The notes under the pieces: model-generated
The model's database searches: none
Told to the model about the DNA's origin: nothing
The model's input: the letters and a program-made list of their open reading frames with translations, nothing else
Position numbers and translations under genes: made by a program
In this document: positions 12,242-58,474 of the stretch, piece after piece
Layout of the letters: every line of letters starts with the position of its first letter
Numbering within the stretch: the stretch's first letter is position 1
Assembly: GCF_900091465.1 (NCBI RefSeq)
Contig: NZ_FMHV01000002.1
Span: 3,968,001-4,032,000 of the forward strand
DNA from: Micromonospora rhizosphaerae
GTDB lineage: Bacteria; Actinomycetota; Actinomycetes; Mycobacteriales; Micromonosporaceae
Direction of reading: 5' to 3'
Length of the DNA: 64,000 bases

Positions 12242-12258
12242 CCAGGGGGCCCACCACC

Positions 12259-13212: not shown

Positions 13213-13237
13213 CCGGATCCCCCGACAGCATCGAGCG

Positions 13238-13263
13238 AAACGCCGCCCCGGTGGGCGGCGTTT
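13238..13263 (+). terminator. tatAC terminator hairpin
   Basis: AAACGCCGCCC (13238-13248) pairs perfectly with GGGCGGCGTTT (13253-13263), giving an 11-bp stem with a 4-nt loop. The A-run in the 5' arm and T-run in the 3' arm make it look like a bidirectional intrinsic terminator. It lies between tatC and the convergent binding-protein gene. Confidence 0.65.
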
Positions 13264-13346
13264 CCGTTGGCGGCGGCACGGGGGCGGGCACGGCCGCAGG
13301 GTCCCGTGCCGATCCGAAGCCCAGCCCGATCATCGCGGCGACGGTG

Positions 13347-14231: not shown

Positions 14232-14446
14232 CCCGCCATCCTGCCCGTCCCCGGTACGCCGGGGAACCGCCCCCGTCCCCGCAGTTCCCCCGATCCGGAC
14301 GTCCTGGCCGTGACCCGGCGATAGGCTGGGGCGGCGCCTGGGGAACGCCGGACGCGCCGGGCGTCGCGGCGCACCGGTCGCCGAGGTCCACCGGTCGACC
14401 GTCCGGAAGCGCCCACTCCGACGGCGATCTCGCGGGAGGCGGTGCG

Positions 14447-14824: not shown

Positions 14825-16872
14825 GGACTCTCGTCCGGGTGCTGGACGGAAACGTCTTCGTGCTCAGCGACGAGAACGGCGACATCGAGGCGAGCATCGC
14901 CAACCCGTCCGGCTTCTTCGACTTCGACACTCGGTTTCTGTCGCTGTGGCGGCTGAGTCTCAACGGGGACCGGCTGCACGCGCTCTCCATCGCCGAACGG
15001 GACTACCTCACGCTGCGCTTCTTCCTGGTGCCGGGAGAGCCGACGCACTACCTGGACGCCAAGGCCTCGGTCGTCCGGGAGCGAAACATCGCCAGCGGCG
15101 CCTTCGAGGAGCAGCTGACCGTCCTCAACCACGACCAGGGGCCGGTGGAGTTCACCGTACGGCTGGACATCGCCAGCGACTTCATGCCGATCCTGGCGGT
15201 CAGCCAGGAGCGACAGCCGACGGGACGGCTCTATCGGCGCGTCGAGGACGGGCGCCTGCGGCTCGGCTACCGGCGGGAGAAGTTCCAGCGGGAGACGTTG
15301 ATCTCCACCAGCGAGCCGGCGGCCGTCGACGAGCACGGGCTGACGTACACGGTCCGGGTGGAGCCGAAGGGGAAATGGAGCACCACGCTGCGGGTCCAGT
15401 CGCTGGTGCTGCGGCCGGACGGCCAGGACGTCCGGGACCGGCTGCACCGTCGCCGCCGCCGGACGGCGGCGGAGCGGCAAAGCGACCTCGCGGCCTGGCT
15501 GGACCGGGCGCCGCGGCTGAGTTGCGACTGGGTCGCAATGACCACGACCTACCAGCGGAGCCTGGTGGACCTGGCCAGCCTCCGGTATTCACCGCTGACC
15601 CTACCGGACGAGGCGATGCCCGCCGCCGGTCTGCCCTGGGCCGCCACCATCACCGGCCGGGACAGCATCCTCGCCAGCTTCCAGGCGCTGCCCTTCGCCC
15701 CGGAGTTGGCCGTCGCCACCCTGCGGATGCTCGGCATCGACCAGGGGTCGGTGCTCGACGACTTCCGGGACGAGGAGCCGGGCAAGATCCTGCGCGAGTT
15801 CCGGTACGGCGAGCTGGTGGCCTTCGAGGAGCTACCCCAGTCGCCCTACTACGGCAGCGCCGACGTCACCCCGCTGTACGTGATCCTGCTCGACGAGCAC
15901 GAGCGGTGGACCGGGGACGCCAGCCTGGTCCGGCAGTTCGAGGACGAGGCTCGGGGGGCGCTGCGCTGGATCGACGAGTACGGCGACATCCTGGGCAACG
16001 GCTACGTCTGGTACCAGCGCCGTAACGAGCGCTCCGGGCTGGAGAACCAGGGCTGGAAGGAATCGGCGGGGGCGATCTGCTATTCCGACGGTCGCCTGCC
16101 CGGACTGCCCCGGGCCACCTGCGAGCTGCAGGGCTACGCCTACGACGCGAAGATCCGCGGCGCCCGGCTGGCCCGCGAGTTCTGGGGCGACCCGGCGTAC
16201 GCGGACCGGCTGGAGCGGGAGGCGGCCGCGCTCAAGGAGCGGTTCAACCAGGACTTCTGGATCGCCGGCGGCGGGTACTACGCGCTCGCCCTCGACGCCG
16301 ACGGCCGGCAGGTCGACGCGCTCGCGTCCAACATGGGCCATCTGCTGTGGAGCGGCATCGTCGACGAGTCCCGGGCCGAGCAGGTCGTCGCGCACCTGCT
16401 CGGCCCCCGGCTCTTCTCCGGCTGGGGCATTCGGACCCTGGCCGAGGGGGAGGCCAGCTACAACCCGCTCGGCTATCACGTCGGCACGGTCTGGCCGTTC
16501 GACAACGCGGTGATCGCCTGGGGGCTGCGCCGGTACGGTTTCACCGCGGAGGCCGGGCGGATCGCCGAGGGCATCATCGACGCGTCGTACTACTTCGACG
16601 GGCGGTTGCCGGAGGCGTTCGCGGGCTATCACCGGGAACGGACCCGGTTCCCGGTGCGCTACCCGGCCGCGAACAGCCCCCAGGCGCTCGCCACCGGCGC
16701 GCCGTTCCTGCTGCTACGCGCCCTGCTCGGGTTGGAGCCGGCGGGGGAGCACCTGCTGATGTCGCCGCGGCTGCCGGCCCGGTTCGGCCGGATGGAGCTG
16801 CTCGACGTCCCCGGGCGGTGGGGTCGGATGGACGTGATCGGCAGCGGCCGGGCCCACATGCACCGCGGCTGA
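14821..16872 (+). CDS. Glycogen debranching enzyme-type protein (amylo-alpha-1,6-glucosidase family)
   Basis: This 683-residue cytoplasmic protein has two parts. About residues 1-230 are an N-terminal beta-sandwich (GDIEASIANPSGFFDFDTR, DYLTLRFFLVPGEP) of the bacterial debranching-enzyme type. About residues 245-680 form a six-hairpin (alpha/alpha)6 barrel with LPWAATITGRDS, EIS-like acidic loops, and YNPLGYHVGTVWPFDNAV. Family members hydrolyse alpha-1,6 or related glucosidic bonds in glycogen-like polymers. The start overlaps the SCP2-like gene. No glycogen genes adjoin, so the substrate is uncertain. Confidence 0.88.
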   Translation: MRTLVRVLDGNVFVLSDENGDIEASIANPSGFFDFDTRFLSLWRLSLNGDRLHALSIAERDYLTLRFFLVPGEPTHYLDAKASVVRERNIASGAFEEQLTVLNHDQGPVEFTVRLDIASDFMPILAVSQERQPTGRLYRRVEDGRLRLGYRREKFQRETLISTSEPAAVDEHGLTYTVRVEPKGKWSTTLRVQSLVLRPDGQDVRDRLHRRRRRTAAERQSDLAAWLDRAPRLSCDWVAMTTTYQRSLVDLASLRYSPLTLPDEAMPAAGLPWAATITGRDSILASFQALPFAPELAVATLRMLGIDQGSVLDDFRDEEPGKILREFRYGELVAFEELPQSPYYGSADVTPLYVILLDEHERWTGDASLVRQFEDEARGALRWIDEYGDILGNGYVWYQRRNERSGLENQGWKESAGAICYSDGRLPGLPRATCELQGYAYDAKIRGARLAREFWGDPAYADRLEREAAALKERFNQDFWIAGGGYYALALDADGRQVDALASNMGHLLWSGIVDESRAEQVVAHLLGPRLFSGWGIRTLAEGEASYNPLGYHVGTVWPFDNAVIAWGLRRYGFTAEAGRIAEGIIDASYYFDGRLPEAFAGYHRERTRFPVRYPAANSPQALATGAPFLLLRALLGLEPAGEHLLMSPRLPARFGRMELLDVPGRWGRMDVIGSGRAHMHRG

Positions 16873-45843: not shown

Positions 45844-47877
45844 TCAGCTCAGGGTGAGCGCGGTGTCATCGACGACGAAGGAGGTCTGCAGCGAGACGTC
45901 CTCCGTGCCGGTGAACTTGATGGTGGCGGTGGTGCCGGCCAGCGACGAGACGTCGAAGGACCGCTGGACGTAGCCGGTCGCGGCGTTGACGTTGGAGTAG
46001 GTGGCCAGCGTGGTGCCGCCGGCCTGGACGGTCAACCGGTCGTACACGGTGCTGCCCGACTCGGCCGTGTCGATGTGCAGCCAGAAGGTGAGGGTGGCCC
46101 GGCAGCCCGCCGGGACGGTCACCGACTGCGACAGGGTGTCGGTGTGGGTCGTGCCGTACCCGTCGAGCCACGCCTTCCACGAGCCGCTGTGCGCCGGCTG
46201 GCCGGTGGAGCTGTCGATGACGCCGGAGGTGGCGGTCCAGCTCACGTTGCCGGACTCGAAGCCGGGGTTGGCCAGCTTCTGGCCCGAGCAGGTGCCGGTG
46301 GGTGGCGGGGTGGTGCTGGTGCTGCAGGTCGGGTCGCCGGTCTGGGCCGGCACGCTGACCGCGTTCCAGGCCGCCTTGACCGTGTCGAACTCGGTGCAGC
46401 TACCCGGGTAGAGGTTCTTCGTCGCCTGCAGCGTCCAGGTGCGGTACTTCAGGTACGACGAGGCCGTCGTCTTCATCAGCATCGCGTTGTACATGATCTT
46501 CATGGCCTTCTGGATGCCGAGTCCGGTCACGGTGCTGCCGTTGCAGGTCGGGCTGGTCGGCTGGCCGTTGGTCGGGTTGCTGCCCATGGCCAGCAGGTAG
46601 AACCAGTGGTTGCCCGGGCCGGCCGCCGCGTGCACCTCGGTGCCGGGGATGCTGCTGGAGTAGCAGTTGGGGTCGCCGAGGGCCGACGGGTTGTACATGT
46701 TGCGGATCGGGCCGCTGCCCACCAGGTTGATCTTCTCGCCGACCAGGAAGTCCGGGGCGTCGTAGGTGGACGGCTCGTTGGCGAACCACTCGGTCGCGGC
46801 GCCGAAGGTGTCGGCGACGAACTCCTGGGTCCCGTTGCCCGAGATGCCACCGGGGGTATGGTCGTCGATACCGTGCCCGATCTCGTGAGCGACCACGTCG
46901 ATCGAGCCGATCCACTGGCCCGAGGTGTTCTTGCCGATCTGGACCTGCGTGCCGTCGTAGTAGGCGTTCTGGTCGTTCAGCCCGACCCGGATGGGCCAGG
47001 CGCCGCCGTTGCCGTCGGCGCCGTTGCGACCGAGCCACTGCGACAGCATCCGGTGCTCGGTCTGCGCGGCGAACAGCGCGTCGACGCAGCCGGTCTCCTT
47101 GTTGGTGGCGGTGCCGTTGCCCCAGACGTCGTCCGAGCCGGTGAACGTCGTGTTGGTGGCGGCGTCCTGGCAGCTCTGGTTGGTGACGTTCGGGTCCCTC
47201 ATCGAGTACGTGCTGCCGGAGAAGGTGGTGTTGAGCGTGAGCGGGCTGGGCCCGTTCCACGCGCCGGTGCCGGTGCCGTGCACGATGTGCTCCTGCTTGC
47301 GCAACACCGTGCCGGTGATGGCGTCCACGTCCACGGTCAGCCGACTGGGGCCCTCGGCGTCCCGGCCGGTGAGGGTGGTCTCCCACGCCAGGGCCGGCTC
47401 GCTGCCCAGGGTGTAGACGACCAGCTTGGTGCCCTCGACGGCGTTGACCGTCGGTAGTTGTGTGCGGGCGGTCTGCTCCGCCGCCGCGGCCGCCAGCTTC
47501 GGCGTGGTGGTCAGGTTGCCGATGGCCCGCTCCTGGGCGACGGAGGCGTACCTCAGCTGGCCGGTGGCGCTCGTCGCGAGGACGAAGTCACCACCGGTCA
47601 CCGGAAGGCCCTTGTAGGTGCGCTCGTAGGGCACGTACTGGGTGCCGTCGGCGGTGATGACCGGCTTCTGCACGAACGCGTCGTCGGGGCTGGCGTGCAG
47701 ATACTGCGGGCGGTTGGCGACCAGCGCGGCCGCCGAGCTGGCGGCGAGCGCGCGGGCCTGGGCGGCGTCGGGGGCGGGGCTGGGGGGCGCGGCCTGCACG
47801 GCCGCGGCGGTGCCGGCGGCGATCAGGCCGGCCGCGGCGGTGCCGGAGAGCGCGACGAGTCGGGGTGCGAGCTTCAA
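45844..47877 (-). CDS. Secreted M4-family (thermolysin-like) metalloprotease with C-terminal beta domain
   Basis: This 677-residue preproenzyme starts at a TTG (47877) preceded by AGGAG 9 nt upstream. Then come a signal peptide (about residues 1-32), an FTP/PepSY propeptide (about 50-190), and the M4 catalytic domain with HEIGH (His331-Glu332-x2-His335) and the third zinc ligand in GTQEFVADTFG. A C-terminal domain (about 540-677; LANPGFESGNVSW, SFVVDDTALTL) resembles carbohydrate-binding/P-like modules common in actinobacterial secreted proteases. It should be secreted and self-activated. It is convergent with the GH3 gene. Confidence 0.92.
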   Translation of the reverse strand: MKLAPRLVALSGTAAAGLIAAGTAAAVQAAPPSPAPDAAQARALAASSAAALVANRPQYLHASPDDAFVQKPVITADGTQYVPYERTYKGLPVTGGDFVLATSATGQLRYASVAQERAIGNLTTTPKLAAAAAEQTARTQLPTVNAVEGTKLVVYTLGSEPALAWETTLTGRDAEGPSRLTVDVDAITGTVLRKQEHIVHGTGTGAWNGPSPLTLNTTFSGSTYSMRDPNVTNQSCQDAATNTTFTGSDDVWGNGTATNKETGCVDALFAAQTEHRMLSQWLGRNGADGNGGAWPIRVGLNDQNAYYDGTQVQIGKNTSGQWIGSIDVVAHEIGHGIDDHTPGGISGNGTQEFVADTFGAATEWFANEPSTYDAPDFLVGEKINLVGSGPIRNMYNPSALGDPNCYSSSIPGTEVHAAAGPGNHWFYLLAMGSNPTNGQPTSPTCNGSTVTGLGIQKAMKIMYNAMLMKTTASSYLKYRTWTLQATKNLYPGSCTEFDTVKAAWNAVSVPAQTGDPTCSTSTTPPPTGTCSGQKLANPGFESGNVSWTATSGVIDSSTGQPAHSGSWKAWLDGYGTTHTDTLSQSVTVPAGCRATLTFWLHIDTAESGSTVYDRLTVQAGGTTLATYSNVNAATGYVQRSFDVSSLAGTTATIKFTGTEDVSLQTSFVVDDTALTLS

Positions 47878-48744
47878 GGGGGTACGCTCCTGTTCCTCGG
47901 CGACGTGCGGAGCCCGGTGGGGACGCACGCCGCGTCTGGCGCTGAGGCGGGGCGATGGTCTCCGGAGCTGCCGGCCTGCTTCGGATGGATCGACCACCGT
48001 CACGACGCACCGGGGGTCGGTGTGTCGCGGGAGCACGATCACACGGGCGGAGACGCAGATCAATGGGTGACCCGGGCAACCGTCTCGTTTCGGTCGCCTC
48101 AGCGACGCAGCGCTTCAGGAAGCCATGATCTTCGATGGCCCCTGATCAGCCCTAACGCTCTCCGCAGTGGACGGACGCCTGTCCGGGTTGTGGGCATTGC
48201 CGTAGTGTGCGGATGGCGTATCTCCGCCCTCCTCCGTACCGCCCTCGGGGAGCGTTCGTTCGGGCGATGTCGCGGGCGCACTTCCGGCCGATTGCCGACG
48301 GGCGACGGTGGTTCCCTTGATGGCCGCCGTCCCGCGGCGGGCAATCCATGACGTGCTGGCCACGCCGGCCTGAGGTCGCGGTAGGAATCTACCGCCACTT
48401 TCGTCTGCAGCGTAGAAAAGTAGTCACTGGATCAACGAAAGCTATGGACACGCTGTGGGGAAGTTAGTAGTGTCGGGCACCATCAATATGTTTCGCGGAG
48501 ATGAACTACCGGCACGGTAGCTCTCGACTGTGGCCCTTCAGGCGGCGCAACACGTCCGGAGGCCACGACCGGCCAGAGATGGCCACCCCGGGGTCAGCGC
48601 TGCAACGCGGCGACCTGGCGCTGACACGCGCCACGGCTCGACCGATGTCCGTCCGTACCCGACAACACCCCGTCAGCTCCGACGCGGAACCCTGTCCGAT
48701 CCACGTGCGATCCGGCCGCCGCTGAGATCGGACCATTCATCCAC
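47878..48744. other. Long intergenic stretch without a recognisable gene
   Basis: About 870 bp between the protease start and the leader of the next gene. Short open frames exist on both strands (for example minus 48115-48363) but have no recognisable domain, no Shine-Dalgarno in place and atypical composition. The part around 48400-48530 is richer in A and T than the surroundings and probably holds promoter elements for the cupredoxin gene. I see no RNA gene with confidence. Confidence 0.45.
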
Positions 48745-48860
48745 ATTAGACGACCGTGGCCGCCGGGCACGGCCGAGGACCCCGTGCGGCCAGGGAGGGG
48801 CCGACGGGTGGGGAACCCATGTCGTCGACGGGCCGACGCCCGTTCCGCCCGGTCTTTCCG
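48745..48860 (+). promoter_or_regulatory. Possible structured 5' leader of the cupredoxin/3-keto-disaccharide hydrolase gene
   Basis: The leader contains a hairpin with GCACGG/CCGTGC inner arms, the motif GGGGAACCCA at 48810-48819, and an ACGGGC/GCCCGT hairpin near 48837-48853. GGGGAACCCA occurs in actinobacterial c-di-AMP (ydaO-type) riboswitches that precede secreted-enzyme genes, but the companion GGGTGAAT element is not found here. The riboswitch assignment is therefore weak; it may be another structured leader. Confidence 0.2.
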
Positions 48861-48879
48861 GACCGTGAGAGAGGCATCC

Positions 48880-51800
48880 ATGAACCCACATGCACCGCGC
48901 GGTCGGCTCACGGTGAGCCGGCTCCGGAGATCGCTGGCGGCCATCGCCACGATGGCGCTGCTGCTGATCACCGGCCTGGCCGCCTCCCCGGCGAACGCGC
49001 GTCCGACCGACCTGGAACGTTCCGCGACGGCCGCGGCGAGCTCGTCGTCGACGCAATTGCAGGCCCAGGTCCTCACCTGGACCGCGGGTGACAACTTCCT
49101 GTCGTACCTGTCGGCGCCGACCACCGCCACGGCCGGGCCGGCCACTCTGGTCTTCGAGAACAGCCGGGCCACCGGCAACACCACCGGGATGCAGCACACG
49201 CTCACGTTCGAAACGGGCGACCCGAGGTACAACAGCGACGTCGACGTGAACATCCTGGCGGATCCGACGGACAGCAACGGGGGCCGCTGGACCGTTGACG
49301 TGGTGCTGTCGCCCGGCACCTACCGATACTTCTGCTCCATCCCCGGCCACGGCGGAATGACCGGGCTCCTGGTGGTCAGCGGTGGCGGGTCGGACACCAC
49401 GCCGCCCACGGTGACCGCCACGGTGTCCGGGGAGAAGGACCCCACCGGGGCGTACGTGGGCAGTGCGACGGTGACCCTGTCGGCGACGGACAGCGGCTCG
49501 GGCGTCGACCGGGTCGAATATTCCCTGGACGGGGGGCCGTTCGGCACGTACTCGGCGCCGGTGACGGTGAACCAGGCGGGTCAGCACACGGTGAGCTACC
49601 GGGCCACGGACAAGGCGGGCAACACCTCGTCGCCGCAGTCCGTCTCGTTCTCGGTCGTCGAACCGCCCCCGACGGACACCACTCCGCCCACGGTGACGGC
49701 CGCGGTGACCGGCCAGAAGGACGCCAACGGCGCGTATGTGGGCAGCGCCACGGTGACCGTCTCCGCCACGGACACCGAGTCCGGCGTGGACCGCATCGAG
49801 TACTCGCTCGACGGCGGCGCCTACGCCGCCTACTCGGCGCCGGTGACGGTGAACCAGCCCGGTCAGCACACGGTGAGCTACCGGGCCACGGACAAGGCGG
49901 GCAACACGTCCTCCCCGCAGTCGGTGTCCTTCACGGTGGTGGAGACACCGCCGGCCGACACCACCCCGCCGACGGTGACCGCGGCGGTGACGGGCCAGAA
50001 GGACGCCAACGGCAACTACGTCGGCAGCGCCACGGTGACCTTGTCCGCCACCGACAGCGGCTCGGGTGTGGATCGGATCGAGTACTCCCTCGACGGGCAG
50101 CCGTACGCCGGTTACTCGGCGCCGGTGACGGTGAACCAGCCCGGTCAGCACACGGTGAGCTACCGGGCCACGGACAAGGCGGGCAACACGTCCTCCCCGC
50201 AGTCGGTGTCCTTCACGGTGGTGGAGACGCCGCCGGCCGACACCACCCCGCCGACGGTGACCGCGGCGGTGACGGGTCAGCAGGACGCCAACGGCAACTA
50301 CGTCGGCAGCGCCACGGTGACCCTGTCCGCCACCGACACGCAGTCGGGCGTGGACCGGATCGAGTACGCGCTCGACGGCGGCGCCTACGCCGCCTACTCG
50401 GCGCCGGTGACGGTCAACCATCTGGGCCAGCACACCGTCAGCTACCGGGCGACCGACAAGGCGGGCAACACCTCCGCGCCGCAGTCGGTGTCCTTCACGG
50501 TGGTGGAGACGCCGCCGGCCGACACCACCCCGCCGACGGTGACCGCGGCGGTGACGGGTCAGCAGGACGCCAACGGCGCGTACGTCGGGAGCGCCACGGT
50601 GACGGTCTCCGCCACCGACAGCGGCTCCGGCGTCGACCGGATTGAGTACTCCCTGGACGGGCAGCCGTACGCCGCCTATTCGGCGCCGGTGACGGTCAAC
50701 CAGCCGGGCCAGCACACGGTCAGCTACCGGGCGACCGACAAGGCGGGCAACACCTCCGCGCCGCAGTCGGTGTCCTTCACGGTGGTCGAGCCACCCGCGC
50801 CGGACACCAGCCCACCGACCGCGACCGCCGCCGTGTCCGGGCAGCTTGACAACAACGGCGCGTACGTCGGAAGCGCCACCGTCATCCTGTCCGCGACGGA
50901 CGCGGGCTCGGGGGTCGACCGCATCGAGTACTCCCTCGACGCGCAGCCGTACGCCCGGTACTCGGCGCCGGTGACGGTGAACCAGCCGGGTCAGCACACG
51001 CTGAGTTACCGGGCCACCGACAAGGCCGGCAACACCTCGGGTACCGCGTCGGTCACCTTCACGGTGGTGGCGAGCGGGCCGGGCCCCGACTGCCCGGTGA
51101 AGGACACCCGGCCGACCGTGTGGCTCGGCACCGTGGACAGCGGCGTGCCCAACCGGGTCGTCGAGGGTGACTGCACGATCAACAACGTCATCGAGGACGA
51201 GCGGACCTGGCCCAACCACGGCGAGTTCGTCTCCTACGTGACCACGATCGCCGAGCACCTGCACCACCTGGGCGTCATCACCCACCACGAGCACGGCCGC
51301 CTGGTGAGCGCCGCCGGTCGCTCCGGCGTCGGCAAGCCGGACGAGAAGAACGGCTACCAGCCGCTGCTCGACAACTCGGCGGCGTCCTTCGGTCGGTGGC
51401 AGCAGGTCGGCGCGGGCGACTTCACCCGCAACGCCGACGGGTCGATCACCAGCCGGCCGGTACCGGGGCTGGGCATGCTCTGGTTCCCGGTGGCCGCGTA
51501 CGGCGATTTCTCCCTCAAGCTGCAGTGGCGCGACGACGCCACCGGCGACGGCCGGGCCAACAGCGGGGTCTTCGTCCGCTTCCCGAACGTGCACCAGCAC
51601 CCGGACGAGTCCCGCCCGGAGTGGGTGGCCATCAAGTACGGCCACGAGCTGCAGATCCTCGACCGACCCGACGGTGACCAGTACAAGAGCGGATCGGTGT
51701 ACGGCTTCGACCGGGTCGACCTGGCCGGCGCCAACGTCACCCCGAAGGGCACCTGGAACGACTACGAGATCCGCGTGGTCGGCCAGCACTACTCCGTCTT

Positions 51801-52035
51801 CCGCAACGGGGTGCTGATCAACGACTACGTCAACACCCCGGACGCGGTGTTCACCCCACCCCGGGCGGACGACCCCGGTGGCGCCGGACGGCAGAGCGCC
51901 AGCGGATACATCGGCCTGCAGAACCACGGCGCCGCCGACGTCATCAGCTTCCGCAACGTGCGGATCGCGCCACTCTCCCCGTGCTGCCCGACCGGGACGT
52001 CCTCCTCCTCCGCCAATCCCAGCACCTGCTGCTGA
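48880..52035 (+). CDS. Secreted cupredoxin / six Ig-like (OmpL47-type) repeats / 3-keto-disaccharide hydrolase domain protein
   Basis: This 1,051-residue exported protein has a signal peptide (RRSLAAIATMALLLITGLAA, cleavage near ANA). A cupredoxin domain (about residues 60-168) has type-1 copper ligands His in GMQHTLTFE and Cys, His and Met in FCSIPGHGGMTG. Six 94-residue Ig-like repeats run from 172 to about 735. A linker module (737-828) contains CTIN and NHGEFVSYV. The C-terminal domain (about 829-1035) is of the DUF1080/3-keto-disaccharide hydrolase type with WFPVAAYGDFSLKLQWRDD, NSGVFVRFP and WNDYEIRVVGQHYSVFRNG. GAGAGAGG precedes ATG 48880. It starts the cluster that continues 20 bp later. 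Confidence 0.88.
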   Translation: MNPHAPRGRLTVSRLRRSLAAIATMALLLITGLAASPANARPTDLERSATAAASSSSTQLQAQVLTWTAGDNFLSYLSAPTTATAGPATLVFENSRATGNTTGMQHTLTFETGDPRYNSDVDVNILADPTDSNGGRWTVDVVLSPGTYRYFCSIPGHGGMTGLLVVSGGGSDTTPPTVTATVSGEKDPTGAYVGSATVTLSATDSGSGVDRVEYSLDGGPFGTYSAPVTVNQAGQHTVSYRATDKAGNTSSPQSVSFSVVEPPPTDTTPPTVTAAVTGQKDANGAYVGSATVTVSATDTESGVDRIEYSLDGGAYAAYSAPVTVNQPGQHTVSYRATDKAGNTSSPQSVSFTVVETPPADTTPPTVTAAVTGQKDANGNYVGSATVTLSATDSGSGVDRIEYSLDGQPYAGYSAPVTVNQPGQHTVSYRATDKAGNTSSPQSVSFTVVETPPADTTPPTVTAAVTGQQDANGNYVGSATVTLSATDTQSGVDRIEYALDGGAYAAYSAPVTVNHLGQHTVSYRATDKAGNTSAPQSVSFTVVETPPADTTPPTVTAAVTGQQDANGAYVGSATVTVSATDSGSGVDRIEYSLDGQPYAAYSAPVTVNQPGQHTVSYRATDKAGNTSAPQSVSFTVVEPPAPDTSPPTATAAVSGQLDNNGAYVGSATVILSATDAGSGVDRIEYSLDAQPYARYSAPVTVNQPGQHTLSYRATDKAGNTSGTASVTFTVVASGPGPDCPVKDTRPTVWLGTVDSGVPNRVVEGDCTINNVIEDERTWPNHGEFVSYVTTIAEHLHHLGVITHHEHGRLVSAAGRSGVGKPDEKNGYQPLLDNSAASFGRWQQVGAGDFTRNADGSITSRPVPGLGMLWFPVAAYGDFSLKLQWRDDATGDGRANSGVFVRFPNVHQHPDESRPEWVAIKYGHELQILDRPDGDQYKSGSVYGFDRVDLAGANVTPKGTWNDYEIRVVGQHYSVFRNGVLINDYVNTPDAVFTPPRADDPGGAGRQSASGYIGLQNHGAADVISFRNVRIAPLSPCCPTGTSSSSANPSTCC
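49393..51075 (+). repeat. Six in-frame tandem repeats of 282 bp (94 residues)
   Basis: Repeat units begin at 49393, 49675, 49957, 50239, 50521 and 50803, an exact 282-bp period. Each begins DTTPPTVTA (or a near variant) and contains SGVDRIEYSLDG, YSAPVTVNQPGQHTVSYRAT and DKAGNTS. Units 2 to 5 are nearly identical over long DNA stretches, which suggests recent duplication or gene conversion. They form a rigid spacer between the copper domain and the hydrolase domain. Confidence 0.92.
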
Positions 52036-52055
52036 CCGAGGAAAGGGAACCAACC

Positions 52056-53024
52056 ATGGCAAAACACAGGATCGATCGCCGAACGCTGTTACGGGGACTC
52101 GCCGGGTCCACCGTGGCGGTCAGCGCGGCCAGCCTGACCGGGGTCGCGCCGGCCTGCGCGTCGGACGGCGAGTCGAACGGTCACCTGATCCCGCGCGGCC
52201 AGATGGGCATCCAGCTCTACAGCGTTCGCGACAAGATCGCGCAGGTCGGCTTCGCCCCGGTCTTCGAGGAGCTCTCCCGCATCGGCTACCGGGAGGTGGA
52301 GTTCGCCGGCTACACCCAGGGCGCCGCCGGCCCGATCACCCCCACTCAGATCCGGCAGCTGCTCGACGACAACGGGCTGAAGGCGGCGGGCAGCCACCGC
52401 GGGCTGGCCGACTTCCGCACCAACCTGGAGTTGGAACTCGACGTCGCCGAGACCCTCGGCATGCCGGCGATCGGCACCGCCCAGGCGCCCACCGGGAACC
52501 GCACCATCGCCGGGTACCAGGCGGCCGCCGCGGAGTTCAACGCGTGGGGCGCGGCCGCCGCGGCCCGCGGCATCAAGCTCTACCAGCACAACCACACCAT
52601 CGAGTTCAGTTTCGCCGTCGACCGGCCCGACGTGCGGCTGTACGACCTGTTCCTGGAGCTCACCGATCCGCGGTACGTGTACCTGGAGATGGACATCCTG
52701 TGGGCGTACGGCGGCGCCCGGAAGTACCCCGGCTTCCGCCCGGTCGACTATGTGAACGCCCAGCCGCACCGCTACCCGATGTTCCACGTCAAGGACGGCG
52801 TCCCGCTGCCCGACCCGCAGCAGGGCAACTCCTACCTGGACGTCGAGTTCGGTGCCGGAGTCATCCCGTTCGCCGAGTTCTTCGACGAGCTGAAGGGCCG
52901 GGGGCGCTTCGAATTCCTGTGGGAGCAGGACACCGCGCCGAACGCCCAGCCCAACCCGCCGGGGTCGCTGGGTGCCGCGGAGCGTAGCTACCAGCGCATG
53001 GTCGAGCTGCGGGGTGCCCGGTGA
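52056..53024 (+). CDS. Tat-exported TIM-barrel sugar isomerase/epimerase-like protein
   Basis: This 322-residue protein has a twin-arginine signal (DRRTLLRGLAG then hydrophobic VAVSAASLTGVAP, cleavage near ACA). The TIM barrel is of the xylose isomerase-like/AP endonuclease 2 fold: MGIQLYSVRDKI, REVEFAGYT, LYQHNHTIEF, YVYLEMDILWAYGG and MFHVKDG give the metal-binding His, Glu and Asp positions. Members act on keto sugars, and some relatives act on 3-keto-glycosides. Export as a folded protein fits tatAC in this window. It follows the cupredoxin protein gene by 20 bp and overlaps the multicopper oxidase gene by 4 nt. Confidence 0.88.
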   Translation: MAKHRIDRRTLLRGLAGSTVAVSAASLTGVAPACASDGESNGHLIPRGQMGIQLYSVRDKIAQVGFAPVFEELSRIGYREVEFAGYTQGAAGPITPTQIRQLLDDNGLKAAGSHRGLADFRTNLELELDVAETLGMPAIGTAQAPTGNRTIAGYQAAAAEFNAWGAAAAARGIKLYQHNHTIEFSFAVDRPDVRLYDLFLELTDPRYVYLEMDILWAYGGARKYPGFRPVDYVNAQPHRYPMFHVKDGVPLPDPQQGNSYLDVEFGAGVIPFAEFFDELKGRGRFEFLWEQDTAPNAQPNPPGSLGAAERSYQRMVELRGAR

Positions 53025-54214
53025 GCGCCTGGCGGCTGGTGGAGGACGGCCCGGCGCCGAAGCCCGGGTCGGCGGTCGGCCCGACGACCGGGTCCACCGG
53101 CCCGCTGGGCGGCCGGCCCGAGCGTCCGCGTACCGGCGCCCGGCGCATGCTGGTGGTGGCGGCGGTCGTGCTGCTCACTCTGGTCGGTGCCGGCGGGCTG
53201 GCGGTCGCCGGCACCGGGATGTTCGCCGAGCGGCCGGACGGCTGCGTCAAGCCCGACCGCAGCATCCAGCTGTACGCGGTGGAGCTGCCAAAGGACGGCA
53301 CCCAGATCCGGCTCGGCTACGGCCTCACCCCGGAGACGGCGTCCTACCCGGGCCCGACCATGGAGATGATGGAGGGGGAGTGCCTCGCCATCACCCTGCA
53401 CAACCAGGTCTCCGCCGAGACGCTGGCAGCGCTGCGCACCAACCCGGCCCATCCGCTCGGCGTCTCGCTGCACGTACACGGGGTGAAGTACACCCAGGAG
53501 TCTGACGGCACGGTGCAGAGCGCATCGTTCGTCCCGCCGGGTCAGTCGCGCACGTACACCTGGTACGCCGCGCCGCGCAACAACAAGACCGGGGCGCAGG
53601 GCACGGCCGGCTACTGGTGGTACCACGACCACGTGGTGGGTGGCCCGCACGGCACCCAGGGCCTCTCCGCCGGCCTCTTCGGCGGCCTGGTCGTCCGCCG
53701 TCCCGGCGACCCGAAGCCGGACCGGACCTACACGGTGGTCTTCGGTGACCGGCAGAGCATCAACCTGCGCCGGGGCGAGGCCACGGACACCTGCACGGAG
53801 GTGAACCCCCAGCCCGGCCCCACCTGCCTGGTGGCGCGCAAGGGGGAGCGGGTCGAGTTCATCGTCGTCGGCATCGGCAACGACATGCACACCTTCCACC
53901 TGCACGGGCACTCCTGGGCGGACACCCGCACGGGGATGGTGAGCAACGGCCAGCCGTTCGCCGACTCCATACCGGTCATCGACAACAAGACGCTCGGCCC
54001 CGGTGACTCCTTCGGAGTCCAGGTGGTGGCCGGCGACTCGGTCGGACCGGGGCACTGGATGCTGCACTGCCACATGCAGTTCCACTCCGACGCCGGGATG
54101 TCGACCATGCTGCACGTCCTGGACGAGAACGGGAACATGCCGCCCGGCATGGACCACCAGCACGGCGCCGCCTCGGCGCCCGCCACCGACGGCGGCGAGC
54201 ACCAGCACAACTGA
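53021..54214 (+). CDS. Membrane-anchored or secreted multicopper oxidase (two-domain/small type)
   Basis: This 397-residue protein has a signal/anchor (about residues 42-65, RRMLVVAAVVLLTLVGAGGL) after a 40-residue cytoplasmic Pro/Gly-rich stretch. All copper motifs are visible: SLHVHGVKY, YWWYHDHVVGG, HTFHLHGHSW and HWMLHCHMQFHSDAGM. It should oxidise a one-electron donor and reduce O2 to water. A His-rich tail (HQHG, HQHN) may help copper loading. The GTG start overlaps the isomerase stop (GTGA), so production is coupled. The neighbouring cupredoxin domain and sugar dehydrogenase make electron transfer from sugars plausible (inference). Confidence 0.9.
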   Translation: MSAWRLVEDGPAPKPGSAVGPTTGSTGPLGGRPERPRTGARRMLVVAAVVLLTLVGAGGLAVAGTGMFAERPDGCVKPDRSIQLYAVELPKDGTQIRLGYGLTPETASYPGPTMEMMEGECLAITLHNQVSAETLAALRTNPAHPLGVSLHVHGVKYTQESDGTVQSASFVPPGQSRTYTWYAAPRNNKTGAQGTAGYWWYHDHVVGGPHGTQGLSAGLFGGLVVRRPGDPKPDRTYTVVFGDRQSINLRRGEATDTCTEVNPQPGPTCLVARKGERVEFIVVGIGNDMHTFHLHGHSWADTRTGMVSNGQPFADSIPVIDNKTLGPGDSFGVQVVAGDSVGPGHWMLHCHMQFHSDAGMSTMLHVLDENGNMPPGMDHQHGAASAPATDGGEHQHN

Positions 54215-54223
54215 CGGGTCCGT

Positions 54224-54255
54224 GGCCGCTGGCCCTCTCCCGAGGACCAGCGGCC
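54224..54255 (+). terminator. Hairpin after multicopper oxidase gene
   Basis: GGCCGCTGG (54224-54232) and CCAGCGGCC (54247-54255) pair perfectly, extended outward by GTCCG/CGGAC with a bulge. It begins about 10 bp after the stop. The next gene in the cluster starts 158 bp further on with its own strong Shine-Dalgarno, so it may be a separate transcript or a readthrough one. Confidence 0.4.
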
Positions 54256-54412
54256 GCCGGACCGGCACCACCACCACCGACACCACCACCGACAGCGCCG
54301 CACCGGCCGCCCGAACGGGGTGGCGCGGCGGTCGCGTACAGCCTGCTCCGGTGAATGCCCCACCTCACCGGCGACCCGGAAGACCCTGTCCCTCAATCCA
54401 GGAGGAGTCGAG

Positions 54413-57400
54413 ATGGCTCAAGGACGCCATTTCCGGTTCTCCCGATGGGTCGGACGCCGCCGCGCCGACTCGACGGGATCCACCACACCCACACCGTCCA
54501 CCCCGAACGCTCCGCGTCGCGTCGGCAGCCGCCGCCGCGCCGGAGCCCTGGCGTCGAGCGCCGCGCTGGCGCTCGGCGTACTGACGCTGCCCGTCCAAGC
54601 GGTCAACCCCACGGCGGCCGCCGCCGCCGAGGCCGCCGCGGCGGTCAAGGTGCTGGTCTTCCACGGCCCGGTGGACAAGCAGGATGACCCGGTCGCCCGG
54701 GCGACCGCGACGATCAAGGGGCTGGGCGAGCAGCACGGCTTCACCGTCGACGACTCCGCCGACCCGGCAGTGTTCACCTTCGGCAACCTGGCCCGGTACC
54801 GCGGCGTAGTGTTCCTCTCCGCCAAAGGGGTGACGCTCAGCGACGCCCAGGAGGCCGCGCTCCAGGCGTACGTCAAGGGTGGCGGCGGCTTCGTCGGCGT
54901 CCACGACGCGGCGCGGGCCCAGCCGGAATCCTCCTGGTTCACCGGCCTGATCGGCGCCCGTCCCGCCAGCGGCCTGCCGAACGCGGAGAGGCCGGTCTCG
55001 GCCACGGCCAGCGCGGAGAACCCGCCGAACGAGACCGCCGCGAAGGCGATCGACGGGTCGACCAGCACCAAGTGGCTGACCTTCAACCCGACCGGGTGGC
55101 TGGCCGCCAAGCTCGCCAATCCCGTCGTCGTCTCCCGCTACGCGCTGACCTCGGCCAACGACTTCCCGGGGCGGGACCCGAAGGACTGGACCCTGCAGGG
55201 CTCCGAGGACGGCACCACCTGGACCGACCTGGACACCCGCAGCAACGAGACCTTCCCGCAGCGGTTCCAGACCAAGCAGTACAGCTTCACCAACACCAAG
55301 GCATACCAGCACTACCGGCTGAACGTCACCGCGAACAGCGGTGAGCCGCTGGTGCAGCTGGCCGAGCTGTGGCTGATCGGCCCCGACGCCGGTCCGCCCC
55401 CGGACGCCACTGTGCAGCGGGCGACCGTCGACCTCACCGACCGGCAGCACCCGGCCAACGACGGGCTGCCGCTGACCTGGACCCGCTCCGACCAGTGGAT
55501 CAACTGGGACTCGAACCCGATCGGCAAGGTGCACACCGTCGCCCAGGTCGAGGAGGGCAGCTACAACGCGGGCCTGAGCGGCAACGGCGCCTTCCACCCG
55601 ATCTCGTGGTGCCAGGACTACGACGGCGGGCGGTCGTTCTACACCGGCATGGGCCGTACCGAGGAGAGCTGGACCAGCGACAAGCAGTTCCAGGGCCACC
55701 TGGCCGGCGCCATCAAGTGGACCGCCGGCCTGGTCCGCGGTGACTGCCAGGCGACCATCGCGTCGAACTACCGGATCGAGCGGCTGACCGCCACCAACCA
55801 GCCGGGCCAGCTCGACCAGATCGGTGAGCCGCACGGTCTGACCATCGCGCCGGACGGCGGGGTGTTCTACATCGGCAAGGCGGCCTGCCCGACCGGCCCG
55901 GTCGTGAGCTGGGACGACCCCAAGGTCGGTCTCGGCTGCGGCACCATCCACCGGTGGGACCCGAAGTCCAAGCAGGTCAAGCTGCTGACCACCCTCGCCG
56001 TGATGGGCAACCGGGGCAGCGGCAGCGAACTGGTGAAGAACGAGGAAGGCCTGGTCGGCATCACCCTCGACCCGAAGTTCACGCAGAACGGCTGGGTGTA
56101 CGTCTACTGGATGCCGCACGAGTCCATCGACCGGGACCGGCGGATCGGCCAGCGGACCGTGTCCCGGTTCATTTACGACGCGGAGAAGCAGTCGATCGAC
56201 CAGAGCACCCGCAAGGACCTGCTGCACTGGGACACCCAGATCCACAGCTGCTGCCACGCCGGTGGCGGCATGACGTTCGACGAGAGCGGCAACCTCTACA
56301 TCGGCAGCGGTGACAGCAACTCCTCCGGCGGGTCGAGCGGCTACTCGGGCAACAACTGGACCCAGGACTACAAGGGGACCTCGTTCCAGGACGCCCGCCG
56401 TACCGCCGGCAACACCAACGACCTCAACGGCAAGATCCTCCGCATCCACCCGGAGGCGGACGGCACGTACACCATCCCGGCCGGGAACCTCTTCACCGGC
56501 AAGGAGGAGGGCGGCGGCAAGAGCCGCCCGGAGATCTACGTGATGGGCGTGCGCAACATCGCCCGGATCGCCTGGGACCCGGTCAACCACTGGCTGACCG
56601 CGGCCTGGGTGGGCCCGGACGCCGGCGCCCCGAGCCCGGACCTCGGCCCGGCGAAGTACGAGACCGCCACGATCATCACCTCGGCGGGCAACCAGGGCTG
56701 GCCGTACTGCATGGGCAACCGGCAGCCGTACCGGGATCGCAGCAACACCGACGCGACCCAGCTGACCGGCTGGTACGACTGCGACAACCTGAAGAACGAG
56801 TCGCCGCGTAACACCGGTCTGGTCAACATCCCGCCGGCGCGGGACAACATGATCTGGTACTCGCCGCAGGGCGGTGGCCCGGTCTTCCCGAAGCGCGCCG
56901 ACGGCAGCGGGCTGCCCACGTACGTGCAGGAGGAGTCGACGTACACCCAGCCGTACCTCAAGGGCGGCGGCCAGGCCATCATGAACGGCCCGACCTACCA
57001 GCGGGAGAAGGTCGACGTCGACAGCGGCGTCGCCTGGCCGACGTACTGGGACAACAAGTGGTTCATCGGCGACGAGTCCAACGCCAACAACCGGGTCGCC
57101 GTCACCGTGGACCCGGCCAAGGTCGCCGACCACGGCCCGCCGGCGTTCGCCGAGGACCTGCGCCAGATCATCCGTTCCGGCAGCGGCGCCACCCAGCTCC
57201 AGTCCTGGATGGACGCCAAGTTCGGCCCGGACGGCGCACTTTACCTGCTCGACTACGCCGGTGGCTTCTTCAGCCTGCACTCGAACCAGAAGCTGATCCG
57301 GATCGTGTACACCGGCGGCGAGGCCACGCCGCGGCCGAGCGACGCCGGCGTACGGGCGGTGGCGCAGAGCCAGCCGAAGACCATCGCGTTCTCCAGCGCG

Positions 57401-58474
57401 AAGGTGGGCGGCGTGGCCTGGGAGTGGGACTTCGGTGACGGCAGCGCGCCGTCGCACGAGGCCAACCCCAGGCACACCTACGCGGATTACGGCACCTACC
57501 AGGCCACGCTGAAGGTGACCTACGCCGACGGCGAGGTAGCCACCGCGAAGATCCAGGTCACCACCGGCTGTGCCGCCCCGGACACCCGGAAGACGGTACG
57601 GATGCTGGACACCGACACCGGTGTGGCCAACCACGTGGTCGGCGGCGGCTGCACCATCAACGACCTGATCGACGACGAGCGGAACTGGGAGAACCACGGC
57701 CAGTTCGTCAGCCACGTCGCCGACGTGGTCAACGACCTGCGCGCCGACGGCGTCGTGGACAACCGGGAGGCCACGAAGCTGAACACCGCGGCGGCCCAGT
57801 CGCAGATCGGCAAGGTCGCCGGGTACCGGTCCCTCTTCGACGGCACGGCGGCGTCGCTCGCAGACTGGCGGCAGGCGCCGGGCGGATCGTTCACCCTGCA
57901 GTCAGACGGATCCATCCGCAGCTCGGGCGGGCTCGGCATGCTCTGGTACGCCAAGGACGAGTTCGGCGACTTCTCGCTGCGGCTGAAGTTCCGGGACGTC
58001 TCCGTCGGCAGCACGTACGCCAACAGCGGAGTCTTCACTCGGTTCCCGGACCCGCGGACCCCGCTGGACCAGCGACCGGCCGGTAGTTGCGGCACGGTCG
58101 GGTCGGCCCGCACCTCTCAGGCGTGGGTGGCGATCTACTGCGGTCAGGAGATCCAGCTCTACGACGGGCCCACCGGTGAGCCGCAGAAGACCGGGTCGAT
58201 CTACAACTTCGACCCGAACAACCTCGAGCAGGCGCAGGTGACCCCGAAGGGTCAGTGGAACGACTACGAGGTCCGGGTCGTCGGACAGCACTACACGATC
58301 ATCCGCAACGGCGTGGTGATCAACGAGTTCGACAACACGCCGGGCAAGGCGTCGTCGCGGCAGGGTGACCCGCCGACGGATCTGCGCCAGTTCCTCAGCG
58401 GATTCATCGGATTGCAGAACCATGGCACCAACGACCTGATGGAGTTCCGCAACGTCCAGGTGCGGGAGCTGTAA
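54413..58474 (+). CDS. Secreted ThuA / discoidin / PQQ-type sugar dehydrogenase / PKD / 3-keto-disaccharide hydrolase protein
   Basis: This 1,353-residue exported enzyme has a signal with RRRAGALASSAALALGVLTL, possibly Tat. A ThuA-like domain (about residues 78-190, VKVLVFHGPVD) is interrupted by a discoidin (F5/8C) domain (about 194-325) and resumes (about 334-445, SWCQDYDGGRSFYTGMGRTE). A glucose/sorbosone dehydrogenase beta-propeller (about 455-965) carries GEPHGLTIAPDGG with the probable catalytic His, HAGGGMTFDESGNLYIGSGD and GNQGWPYCMG. A PKD domain (976-1050, WEWDFGDGSAPSHE), a linker (1053-1139) and a DUF1080/3-keto-disaccharide hydrolase-like domain (1140-1353) complete it. GGAGGAG precedes ATG 54413. 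It would oxidise and hydrolyse sugars outside the cell. Confidence 0.9.
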   Translation: MAQGRHFRFSRWVGRRRADSTGSTTPTPSTPNAPRRVGSRRRAGALASSAALALGVLTLPVQAVNPTAAAAAEAAAAVKVLVFHGPVDKQDDPVARATATIKGLGEQHGFTVDDSADPAVFTFGNLARYRGVVFLSAKGVTLSDAQEAALQAYVKGGGGFVGVHDAARAQPESSWFTGLIGARPASGLPNAERPVSATASAENPPNETAAKAIDGSTSTKWLTFNPTGWLAAKLANPVVVSRYALTSANDFPGRDPKDWTLQGSEDGTTWTDLDTRSNETFPQRFQTKQYSFTNTKAYQHYRLNVTANSGEPLVQLAELWLIGPDAGPPPDATVQRATVDLTDRQHPANDGLPLTWTRSDQWINWDSNPIGKVHTVAQVEEGSYNAGLSGNGAFHPISWCQDYDGGRSFYTGMGRTEESWTSDKQFQGHLAGAIKWTAGLVRGDCQATIASNYRIERLTATNQPGQLDQIGEPHGLTIAPDGGVFYIGKAACPTGPVVSWDDPKVGLGCGTIHRWDPKSKQVKLLTTLAVMGNRGSGSELVKNEEGLVGITLDPKFTQNGWVYVYWMPHESIDRDRRIGQRTVSRFIYDAEKQSIDQSTRKDLLHWDTQIHSCCHAGGGMTFDESGNLYIGSGDSNSSGGSSGYSGNNWTQDYKGTSFQDARRTAGNTNDLNGKILRIHPEADGTYTIPAGNLFTGKEEGGGKSRPEIYVMGVRNIARIAWDPVNHWLTAAWVGPDAGAPSPDLGPAKYETATIITSAGNQGWPYCMGNRQPYRDRSNTDATQLTGWYDCDNLKNESPRNTGLVNIPPARDNMIWYSPQGGGPVFPKRADGSGLPTYVQEESTYTQPYLKGGGQAIMNGPTYQREKVDVDSGVAWPTYWDNKWFIGDESNANNRVAVTVDPAKVADHGPPAFAEDLRQIIRSGSGATQLQSWMDAKFGPDGALYLLDYAGGFFSLHSNQKLIRIVYTGGEATPRPSDAGVRAVAQSQPKTIAFSSAKVGGVAWEWDFGDGSAPSHEANPRHTYADYGTYQATLKVTYADGEVATAKIQVTTGCAAPDTRKTVRMLDTDTGVANHVVGGGCTINDLIDDERNWENHGQFVSHVADVVNDLRADGVVDNREATKLNTAAAQSQIGKVAGYRSLFDGTAASLADWRQAPGGSFTLQSDGSIRSSGGLGMLWYAKDEFGDFSLRLKFRDVSVGSTYANSGVFTRFPDPRTPLDQRPAGSCGTVGSARTSQAWVAIYCGQEIQLYDGPTGEPQKTGSIYNFDPNNLEQAQVTPKGQWNDYEVRVVGQHYTIIRNGVVINEFDNTPGKASSRQGDPPTDLRQFLSGFIGLQNHGTNDLMEFRNVQVREL

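What the first reader, a model, noticed from the sequence alone, without database searches (positions are those of the whole stretch)
48880..58474. Four-gene extracellular sugar-oxidation cluster with its own copper electron path
Four consecutive exported proteins combine, in one cluster, a complete type-1 copper (cupredoxin) domain, a PQQ-type sugar dehydrogenase propeller, a ThuA domain, two DUF1080/3-keto-disaccharide hydrolase domains, a Tat-exported TIM-barrel isomerase-like enzyme, and a multicopper oxidase. The families are known separately: DUF1080 for 3-keto-disaccharide hydrolysis, ThuA for 3-keto-trehalose-type sugars, MCO for O2 reduction. The inference is that sugar is oxidised by the dehydrogenase domain, electrons pass through the cupredoxin to the multicopper oxidase and oxygen, and the oxidised disaccharide is cleaved or isomerised outside the cell. 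This would be respiration-independent sugar oxidation in which the partners are tethered or coexpressed.
Basis: partly seen in the sequence, partly recalled or inferred. Interest (0 to 1): 0.8.

Follow-up and report, generated by a model that had tools for sequence, protein, structure and literature searches.

The report
Small-laccase sugar-oxidation cluster of actinomycetes
A small blue-copper laccase, a separate blue-copper electron carrier and an exported protein that looks like a sugar-oxidising and sugar-cleaving enzyme are inherited as one gene cluster in many actinobacteria, which suggests a use for laccases whose natural role is not settled.

Summary
In detail: four exported proteins in tandem (48880-58474, +) with intact copper-ligand motifs and the named domains. 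The proposed refutation, no conserved clustering, fails. In 246 genomes of the class the multicopper oxidase and the cupredoxin occur in the same 39 genomes, the dehydrogenase protein in 38 of them, and in 37 all three lie within 8 kb. Of 80 named loci fetched by the dehydrogenase alone, 74 carry all three, in six gene arrangements. The oxidase is a two-domain small laccase: in 101 genomes of one genus (taken to be Streptomyces) 61 have it, 60 the dehydrogenase, 59 both, always divergent. A characterised laccase, CjSL, was cloned with primers designed on a cluster gene. The TIM barrel is optional (16 of 80). PQQ is doubtful: pqqC is unlinked to the cluster (13 of 60 against 9 of 41), though several quinoprotein active-site residues are kept. 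Sugar to cupredoxin to laccase to O2 remains an inference, now well motivated and testable, for enzymes whose physiological role is open.

The parts
48352..48879 (+). region upstream of the cluster (promoter presumed, not tested)
   Evidence: position only; two mechanical minus-strand ORFs reach into it and were not assigned. The next gene upstream, 45844-48063 (-), is an M4 metallopeptidase
48880..52035 (+). G1: exported cupredoxin - six OmpL47/Ig-like repeats - unnamed domain - DUF1080 protein
49045..49389 (+). type-1 cupredoxin domain with H-C-H-M ligand pattern
   Evidence: pattern in 65 of 67 clustered Cup ORFs, the 2 others lacking the domain at contig ends
49390..51084 (+). six OmpL47-type repeats (fewer were hit in some relatives)
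51085..51357 (+). unnamed ~85-aa Cys domain ('k'), copy 1
   Evidence: no Pfam match; aligned with copy 2
51355..51966 (+). DUF1080 / 3-keto-disaccharide hydrolase domain 1
52056..53024 (+). G2: Tat-exported TIM barrel (PF01261), optional member of the cluster
53021..54214 (+). G3: two-domain multicopper oxidase of the small-laccase type
54413..58474 (+). G4: ThuA(F5/8C insert) - GSDH propeller - PKD - unnamed domain - DUF1080 protein
54638..55723 (+). ThuA domain interrupted by an F5/8 type C domain (about 55001-55366)
   Evidence: F5/8C hit in 80 of 80 related loci
55748..57322 (+). GSDH propeller-type dehydrogenase domain
56243..56257 (+). H-S-C-C-H motif; its last His aligns with His144 (catalytic base, recalled) of Acinetobacter sGDH
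   Evidence: H, C, C and H invariant in 43 of 43 aligned sequences
57569..57823 (+). unnamed ~85-aa Cys domain ('k'), copy 2
57821..58465 (+). DUF1080 / 3-keto-disaccharide hydrolase domain 2

Best explanation
The cluster encodes a secreted copper redox module. The ThuA-GSDH protein binds a saccharide outside the cell and oxidises it (most likely a glycoside or oligosaccharide at C3). The electrons leave one at a time through the type-1 copper of the cupredoxin protein to the T1 copper of the two-domain small laccase, which gathers four and reduces O2 to water. DUF1080, carried by the dehydrogenase protein, the cupredoxin protein or both, and in some species the TIM barrel, then cleave the oxidised sugar. 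Shown here: domains, copper-ligand motifs, and inheritance of oxidase, cupredoxin and dehydrogenase protein as a unit (export signals by eye). Inferred: substrate, C3 position, direction of electron flow, cofactor. The propeller keeps several sGDH catalytic and Ca/PQQ residues, but PQQ would mostly have to be scavenged, or the cofactor is another.
For: Co-occurrence in 246 class genomes: MCO in 39 and cupredoxin in the same 39, dehydrogenase (matches over 800 bits) in 38 of them and in no other; three genes within 8 kb in 37 of 38, the other split over contigs. 74 of 80 named loci have all three, in six orders/orientations (MCO>GSDH>Cup> 53; Cup>MCO>GSDH> 8; Cup<MCO>GSDH> 7; MCO<GSDH>Cup> 3; GSDH>Cup>MCO> 2; MCO<MCO<GSDH>Cup> 1), so linkage outlives rearrangement. 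Two oxidase subtypes, 42-43% identical in the alignment, serve the same partners. Genus taken to be Streptomyces: 59 of 101 genomes with both, 2 laccase only, 1 dehydrogenase only (its contig ends there), 39 neither. Copper patterns present in 58 of 59 oxidase ORFs and 65 of 67 cupredoxin ORFs. At least one DUF1080 in 79 of 80 loci. sGDH H144, R228, N229, G247 and P248 align to residues invariant in 43 of 43 sequences. An ORF cluster present in 12 loci has a ROK regulator as its one scanned member. PMC9007349 (passages): DUF1080 proteins act with exported C3-dehydrogenases. Recalled: quinoprotein dehydrogenase to cupredoxin transfer is known for methylamine dehydrogenase-amicyanin.
Against: No biochemistry on the dehydrogenase protein or its pairing with the cupredoxin. 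pqqC missing in most carriers examined and unlinked to the cluster. GSDH profile matched only over positions 44-237 of 332; TIGR03606 at 34.2 bits against a cut-off of 434.6; sGDH Gln76 aligns with Glu, Asp143 with Cys; no conserved Arg at the likely place of the C-terminal pair (placed by eye). Two loci lack partners although the DNA is held: L053 (neither) and L098 (no cupredoxin). Laccase-cupredoxin pairs without the dehydrogenase exist (L176). In the 20 class loci opened, 4 of 22 oxidase ORFs miss the strict pattern: two have a one-residue-shorter loop with the ligands kept, one extra copy (L162) has lost a His, and one extra ORF (L166) shows only the first-domain motifs. Species are related, so counts are not independent events.
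Confidence: 0.45

Rival explanations
1. The laccase oxidises plant phenols to radicals and quinones, and the sugar dehydrogenase protein reduces these back, with the cupredoxin as a side carrier: a bacterial counterpart of fungal laccase plus cellobiose/pyranose dehydrogenase (recalled). The cluster then serves lignocellulose attack rather than a closed sugar-to-oxygen chain.
For: CjSL, cloned with primers designed on a cluster oxidase, oxidises many phenols (PMC8236229 passages). Domains often found in carbohydrate-active proteins (F5/8C, PKD) are attached. Quinones are good acceptors of sGDH (recalled).
Against: A dedicated blue-copper protein, as tightly linked as the laccase itself (same 39 genomes), would be superfluous. 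PMC13151041 argues that a Cellvibrio two-domain oxidase is unlikely to degrade lignin polymers efficiently in vivo (passages); that is a more distant enzyme.
Confidence: 0.2
2. The GSDH propeller is not a dehydrogenase (no cofactor); ThuA, propeller and DUF1080 bind and cleave carbohydrate, while cupredoxin plus laccase oxidise something else, or themselves start the sugar oxidation.
For: No link to PQQ synthesis; partial GSDH profile; hedgehog-interacting protein, which also matches the propeller profile, is not a dehydrogenase (recalled). Cupredoxin plus two laccases occur without the dehydrogenase in L176.
Against: His170, Arg269, Asn270 and the Gly-Pro pairs are invariant in 43 of 43, which a mere scaffold need not keep. 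Organisms without PQQ synthesis can use scavenged PQQ (E. coli, recalled).
Confidence: 0.22
3. Copper handling: the cupredoxin stores or delivers copper for maturation of the secreted laccase, and the laccase is a cuprous oxidase.
For: Both are copper proteins and occur in the same genomes, nearly always side by side.
Against: The H-C-H-M pattern of electron-transfer cupredoxins is kept in 65 of 67; the idea explains neither the dehydrogenase nor DUF1080; the one shared regulator type identified nearby is of the ROK family.
Confidence: 0.07
4. The cupredoxin feeds electrons from the dehydrogenase to lytic polysaccharide monooxygenases, as fungal dehydrogenases do (recalled), the laccase being a safety valve.
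For: Analogy only; no tool result supports it.
Against: Among neighbour ORF clusters found in five or more loci, 8 were unassigned; one member each of 4 of them was scanned and none was a monooxygenase. Weak evidence: a monooxygenase could be encoded elsewhere.
Confidence: 0.05

Closest known systems
Two-domain small laccases (SLAC, CjSL; type B 2dMCO)
   Same: The cluster oxidase is of this family: the window's best solved match is a two-domain laccase at 9e-69; cluster oxidases of a named Streptomyces (L062, 1e-184), a named Amycolatopsis (L103, 5e-123) and two genomes taken to be Streptomyces (1e-196, 7e-180) match solved small laccases. CjSL was cloned with primers designed on the gene of Catenuloplanes japonicus NRRL B-16061 that is the cluster oxidase of L111.
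   Different: In the passages I read they are treated as stand-alone phenol oxidases; here they come with a cupredoxin and a ThuA-GSDH protein. The window's subtype has extra loops and 42-43% identity to the SLAC-like subtype.
Soluble quinoprotein glucose dehydrogenase / aldose dehydrogenases (GSDH, PF07995)
   Same: Propeller family and His144, Arg228, Asn229, Gly247-Pro248 equivalents.
   Different: Fused to ThuA/F5-8C/PKD/DUF1080; vicinal Cys-Cys before the His; C-terminal third not matched; no PQQ synthesis gene in most hosts examined.
LacABC / 3-keto-glycoside pathways with DUF1080 (Caulobacter, Bacteroides)
   Same: Exported DUF1080 beside a sugar dehydrogenase (PMC9007349 passages).
   Different: There the dehydrogenase is the membrane-bound LacABC; here a propeller plus copper proteins.
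Sugar-isomerase-like beta-eliminases (AtOGE; PDB 8tcd, 8tcr, 8tcs, 8tct)
   Same: G2 matches 8tcd at 5e-21 with the HNH, D and HxKD positions kept; AtOGE was a putative sugar phosphate isomerase (PMC10628242 passages).
   Different: G2 is Tat-exported and only an occasional cluster member. That 8tcd and its relatives are 3-keto-glucoside lyases is recalled, not read; AtOGE itself was not compared.
Methylamine dehydrogenase-amicyanin and alcohol dehydrogenase-azurin chains
   Same: Periplasmic quinoprotein dehydrogenase handing electrons to a type-1 cupredoxin (recalled).
   Different: Those chains end in membrane cytochromes (recalled); here the proposed end is a secreted laccase.

Membership tests
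Two-domain small laccase (type B 2dMCO) | two cupredoxin domains, with the T1 ligands in the second | tested here: met
   Cu-oxidase_3 and Cu-oxidase_2 over cut-off; HCH-x3-H-x3-GM motif in the second domain
Two-domain small laccase (type B 2dMCO) | all four copper-binding His motifs | tested here: met
   window; 58 of 59 clustered ORFs, the window's among them; 18 of 22 in a further 20 loci by the strict pattern, 20 of 22 when a one-residue-shorter loop is allowed
Two-domain small laccase (type B 2dMCO) | trimer, oxidation of 2,6-dimethoxyphenol | not testable with these tools
   CjSL is a multimer and oxidises it (PMC8236229 passages)
Type-1 cupredoxin | His-Cys-His-Met ligand set | tested here: met
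   65 of 67 ORFs, the other 2 cut; also 20 of 20 further loci, one of them (L166) only with another spacing
Type-1 cupredoxin | Pfam Copper-bind above its cut-off | tested here: inconclusive
   20.3 bits against 21.2
PQQ-dependent sugar dehydrogenase (GSDH) | PF07995 above cut-off | tested here: met
   72.1 against 25, profile positions 44-237 of 332 only
PQQ-dependent sugar dehydrogenase (GSDH) | NCBIfam TIGR03606 above cut-off | tested here: not met
   34.2 against 434.6 bits
PQQ-dependent sugar dehydrogenase (GSDH) | catalytic His, Arg, Asn and Gly-Pro of the Ca/PQQ site | tested here: met
   aligned to sGDH 144, 228, 229, 247-248; invariant in 43 of 43; the roles of the residues are recalled. 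Gln76 and Asp143 are not kept
PQQ-dependent sugar dehydrogenase (GSDH) | C-terminal PQQ-binding Arg residues | tested here: inconclusive
   the profile alignment ends before them; no conserved Arg at the likely positions 485-489, placed by eye
PQQ-dependent sugar dehydrogenase (GSDH) | PQQ supply by the host (not strictly required) | tested here: not met
   pqqC: own genome 47.6 bits against 240, in an unrelated gene neighbourhood; 11 of 50 carriers; 13 of 60 carriers against 9 of 41 others
PQQ-dependent sugar dehydrogenase (GSDH) | binding of PQQ and sugar oxidation | not testable with these tools
3-keto-disaccharide hydrolase (DUF1080) | PF06439 above cut-off | tested here: met
   115.6 and 121.8 against 26.8 bits
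3-keto-disaccharide hydrolase (DUF1080) | activity on 3-keto sugars | not testable with these tools
   PMC9007349 also names a DUF1080 protein that is an endo-xanthanase/lichenase
ThuA | PF06283 above cut-off | tested here: met
   183.8 against 33.4 bits, in two stretches
3-keto-glycoside beta-eliminase (sugar-isomerase-like) | family match and metal-site residues | tested here: inconclusive
   PF01261 41.4 against 31.1 bits; HNH/D/HxKD kept against 8tcd (that these bind the metal is recalled); activity not testable

The most novel reading that the evidence does not exclude
The actinobacterial small laccases are not primarily lignin enzymes: they are the terminal oxidases of a dedicated extracellular sugar-oxidising chain (ThuA-GSDH protein, then its own blue-copper protein, then laccase, then O2), a natural counterpart of the enzymatic sugar/O2 biofuel cell, and its dehydrogenase works with a cofactor other than self-made PQQ.
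Probability: 0.35. Interest if true: 0.88.

Novelty: new variant of a known kind. Interest (0 to 1): 0.7.

Why it matters
Small laccases have been studied since SLAC was characterised in 2004 (reference seen in PMC7036934), yet a 2026 paper still calls the physiological roles of two-domain oxidases poorly understood (PMC13151041, passages). A near one-to-one genomic partnership with a cupredoxin and a ThuA-GSDH protein gives a concrete, testable physiological partner. If the electron path is right, it is an oxygen-consuming sugar oxidation wholly outside the cell, and it gives a setting for the little-understood ThuA and DUF1080 domains. Ten searches of the held library showed me no paper that links these genes; I judged by listings (titles and abstract beginnings) and by passages of seven papers, and most subscription papers are not held.

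Tried and rejected
The own-genome pqqC-like hit was rejected as PqqC: 47.6 bits, beside Rieske- and reductase-like genes (names by eye). Known sugar-operator boxes were rare upstream (with up to 2 mismatches in 70 stretches: 1, 2, 0 and 8). The dehydrogenase counts use strong matches only; the weaker matches (310 bits and below) are taken to be other ThuA/GSDH proteins and were left out after seeing a gap between 812 and 310 bits. The ORF clusters hold 59 oxidases and 67 cupredoxin genes, fewer than the 78 and 74 loci with hits, because of the ORF filter.

Genuine misses: L053 (dehydrogenase gene, no oxidase or cupredoxin), L098 (no cupredoxin), G076 (oxidase and cupredoxin, no strong dehydrogenase), G409 and G400 (oxidase without dehydrogenase; G400 a partial hit). 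Misses that contig ends can explain: L049, L051, L090, L127, G423, and G223 (split over contigs).

Full report
What is there. Four genes on the + strand, close together (G1 48880-52035, G2 52056-53024, G3 53021-54214, G4 54413-58474), encode exported proteins (signals judged by eye). Pfam and NCBIfam scans and translations give: G1 cupredoxin - six OmpL47/Ig-like repeats - DUF1080; G2 Tat signal and PF01261 TIM barrel; G3 two-domain multicopper oxidase; G4 ThuA - GSDH propeller - PKD - DUF1080, with an F5/8 type C domain inserted inside ThuA. Both DUF1080 domains are preceded by the same kind of ~85-residue Cys-containing domain; the G1 copy has no Pfam match. The flanking genes scanned look unrelated (M4 peptidase; YdeI/OmdA-like).

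Is the grouping meaningful? I first saw pairs of DUF1080 domains a few kilobases apart in many genomes of the family. Of 20 places fetched, 17 carry cupredoxin, oxidase and dehydrogenase hits, in L034 spread over about 15 kb, so at least 18 of the 61 family genomes, the window's included, have the set. A search of named genomes with the dehydrogenase domain alone, of which the tool kept the best 80 of 581, shows the oxidase in 78, the cupredoxin in 74 and all three in 74. Of the six incomplete loci, contig ends can explain four (L049, L051, L090, L127); L053 and L098 are real misses. The 74 fall into six orders/orientations (53, 8, 7, 3, 2, 1). The genera include Micromonospora, Streptomyces, Nonomuraea, Amycolatopsis, Actinoplanes, Cellulosimicrobium, Jiangella and Kribbella.

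An independent test started from each component. In 246 genomes spread over the class, the oxidase and the cupredoxin occur in the same 39 genomes; strong dehydrogenase matches in 38 of these and in no other; 37 of 38 have all three within 8 kb. Of 49 oxidase hits, 8 are not near the dehydrogenase, and 6 of those 8 are near a cupredoxin. The two other genomes of the window's genus in the sample lack oxidase and cupredoxin, which fits gain or loss as a unit. In 101 genomes of genus g65, which I take to be Streptomyces, the oxidase is in 61 and the dehydrogenase in 60; 59 have both, on opposite strands and divergent in 59 of 59, 1005-1263 bp from match to match (the ThuA part lies in that gap); 2 oxidase only, 1 dehydrogenase only (its contig ends there), 39 neither. 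The ten loci of that genus that I opened (L150-L159) all have the cupredoxin-DUF1080 gene behind the dehydrogenase gene. Species are related, so these are not independent events; the varied gene orders are the best evidence against mere inheritance of synteny.

The oxidase is a small laccase. The best solved match of G3 is a two-domain laccase (9ix9, 9e-69). Cluster oxidases match solved small laccases best at 1e-184 (named Streptomyces, L062), 1e-196 and 7e-180 (L155, L157) and 5e-123 (named Amycolatopsis, L103, to 3t9w). [quoted passage not shown] Both primers match exactly at the two ends of the cluster oxidase gene of NRRL B-16061, locus L111. So a biochemically studied laccase corresponds to this cluster's oxidase. 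The authors could not measure its redox potential by ferricyanide titration, so that quantity is open. PMC13151041 (passages) states that physiological roles of two-domain oxidases are poorly understood. Ten library searches showed me no paper linking them to ThuA, GSDH or a cupredoxin partner (judged from listings and passages).

Copper sites. The cupredoxin ligand pattern is present in 65 of 67 clustered ORFs (the 2 others cut by contig ends) and all four oxidase motifs in 58 of 59 (loose patterns). In 20 further loci (of the 38 class genomes with the dehydrogenase) the oxidase pattern is complete in 18 of 22 ORFs; of the other four, two keep the ligands with a loop one residue shorter, an extra copy in L162 has lost a His, and an extra ORF in L166 shows only first-domain motifs. 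The cupredoxin ligands are there in 20 of 20, in L166 with another spacing. Such conservation argues for electron transfer rather than copper storage.

The dehydrogenase and PQQ. A profile of the propeller reaches sGDH (1c9u) at 4e-6; His144, Arg228, Asn229 and Gly247-Pro248 align with His170, Arg269, Asn270 and Gly300-Pro301 of the domain, invariant in 43 of 43. Gln76 aligns with Glu99 and Asp143 with Cys169; H, C, C and H of the motif HSCCH are invariant. The C-terminal part is not matched by the profile. The roles of the sGDH residues are recalled. Against PQQ: pqqC passes its cut-off in 7 of 61 family genomes and in 1 of 18 carriers; the window's genome has only a weak relative (47.6 against 240 bits) in another kind of gene neighbourhood; 11 of 50 named carriers have it (50 of the 80 loci were sent); in genus g65, 13 of 60 dehydrogenase carriers and 9 of 41 others (Fisher p = 1). 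So the dehydrogenase mostly scavenges PQQ or uses something else.

The sugar part. DUF1080 is present at least once in 79 of 80 loci: on the dehydrogenase gene, on the cupredoxin gene (L155), or on both (window). DUF1080 proteins are tied to 3-keto-sugar use in Caulobacter and Bacteroides (PMC9007349 passages), though that paper also names one that is an endo-xanthanase/lichenase. The TIM barrel (G2) is nearest to PDB 8tcd and its relatives, recalled as 3-keto-glucoside lyases; a sugar-isomerase-like enzyme does beta-eliminate a 3-keto-glycoside (PMC10628242 passages). It is found in only 16 of 80 loci. ORF clusters seen in 12 and in 5 loci have a ROK regulator and a Gfo/Idh/MocA enzyme as their one scanned member. 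A second cupredoxin plus two laccases in L176 lies beside a ROK regulator, GH3 and sugar ABC genes.

Conclusion. That the three core proteins work together is very likely (my estimate 0.95). That electrons run from a sugar through the cupredoxin to the laccase and O2 is the best single reading (0.45 for the whole statement). Diffusible phenolic acceptors (0.2), a non-redox propeller (0.22), copper handling (0.07) and feeding of monooxygenases (0.05) remain. The parts are all known kinds; the assembly is a new variant.

Noticed in passing
L150-L159, between the laccase and dehydrogenase genes: The divergent promoter region keeps GACAAAGTT in 10 of 10 loci, in most preceded by a TTTATCCACA-like stretch and followed by TTGGCG and TAGCTT-like promoter elements: a likely operator whose regulator could reveal the inducer.
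   Followed up: partly
L141, L145, L146 (window's own genome): Three further GSDH genes, two of them with ThuA hits, each lie beside a TIM-barrel gene related to G2 (30-41% identity), with no cupredoxin or laccase hit in the stretch: a broader ThuA/GSDH + TIM theme.
   Followed up: partly
L176 (G147), about 5698-16445: Cupredoxin with two small laccases but no dehydrogenase, beside a ROK regulator, a GH3 enzyme and a sugar ABC transporter.
   Followed up: partly
window 51085-51357 and 57569-57823; L172, L173: An ~85-aa domain with two Cys, no Pfam match for the copy scanned, four copies found in the genome, the other two at the C-terminal ends of other ORFs, one of them matching a propeller family.
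   Followed up: partly
window 54638-55723: A discoidin-type (F5/8C) domain is inserted inside the ThuA domain; an F5/8C hit is found in 80 of 80 named loci, while the shorter protein opened in L155 has uninterrupted ThuA.
   Followed up: partly
L050, L052, L054, L056 against L067, L068, L070-L072, L074, L075: Named Micromonospora genomes hold two versions of the cluster with different gene order and different laccase subtype, hinting at horizontal transfer or old paralogy.
   Followed up: no
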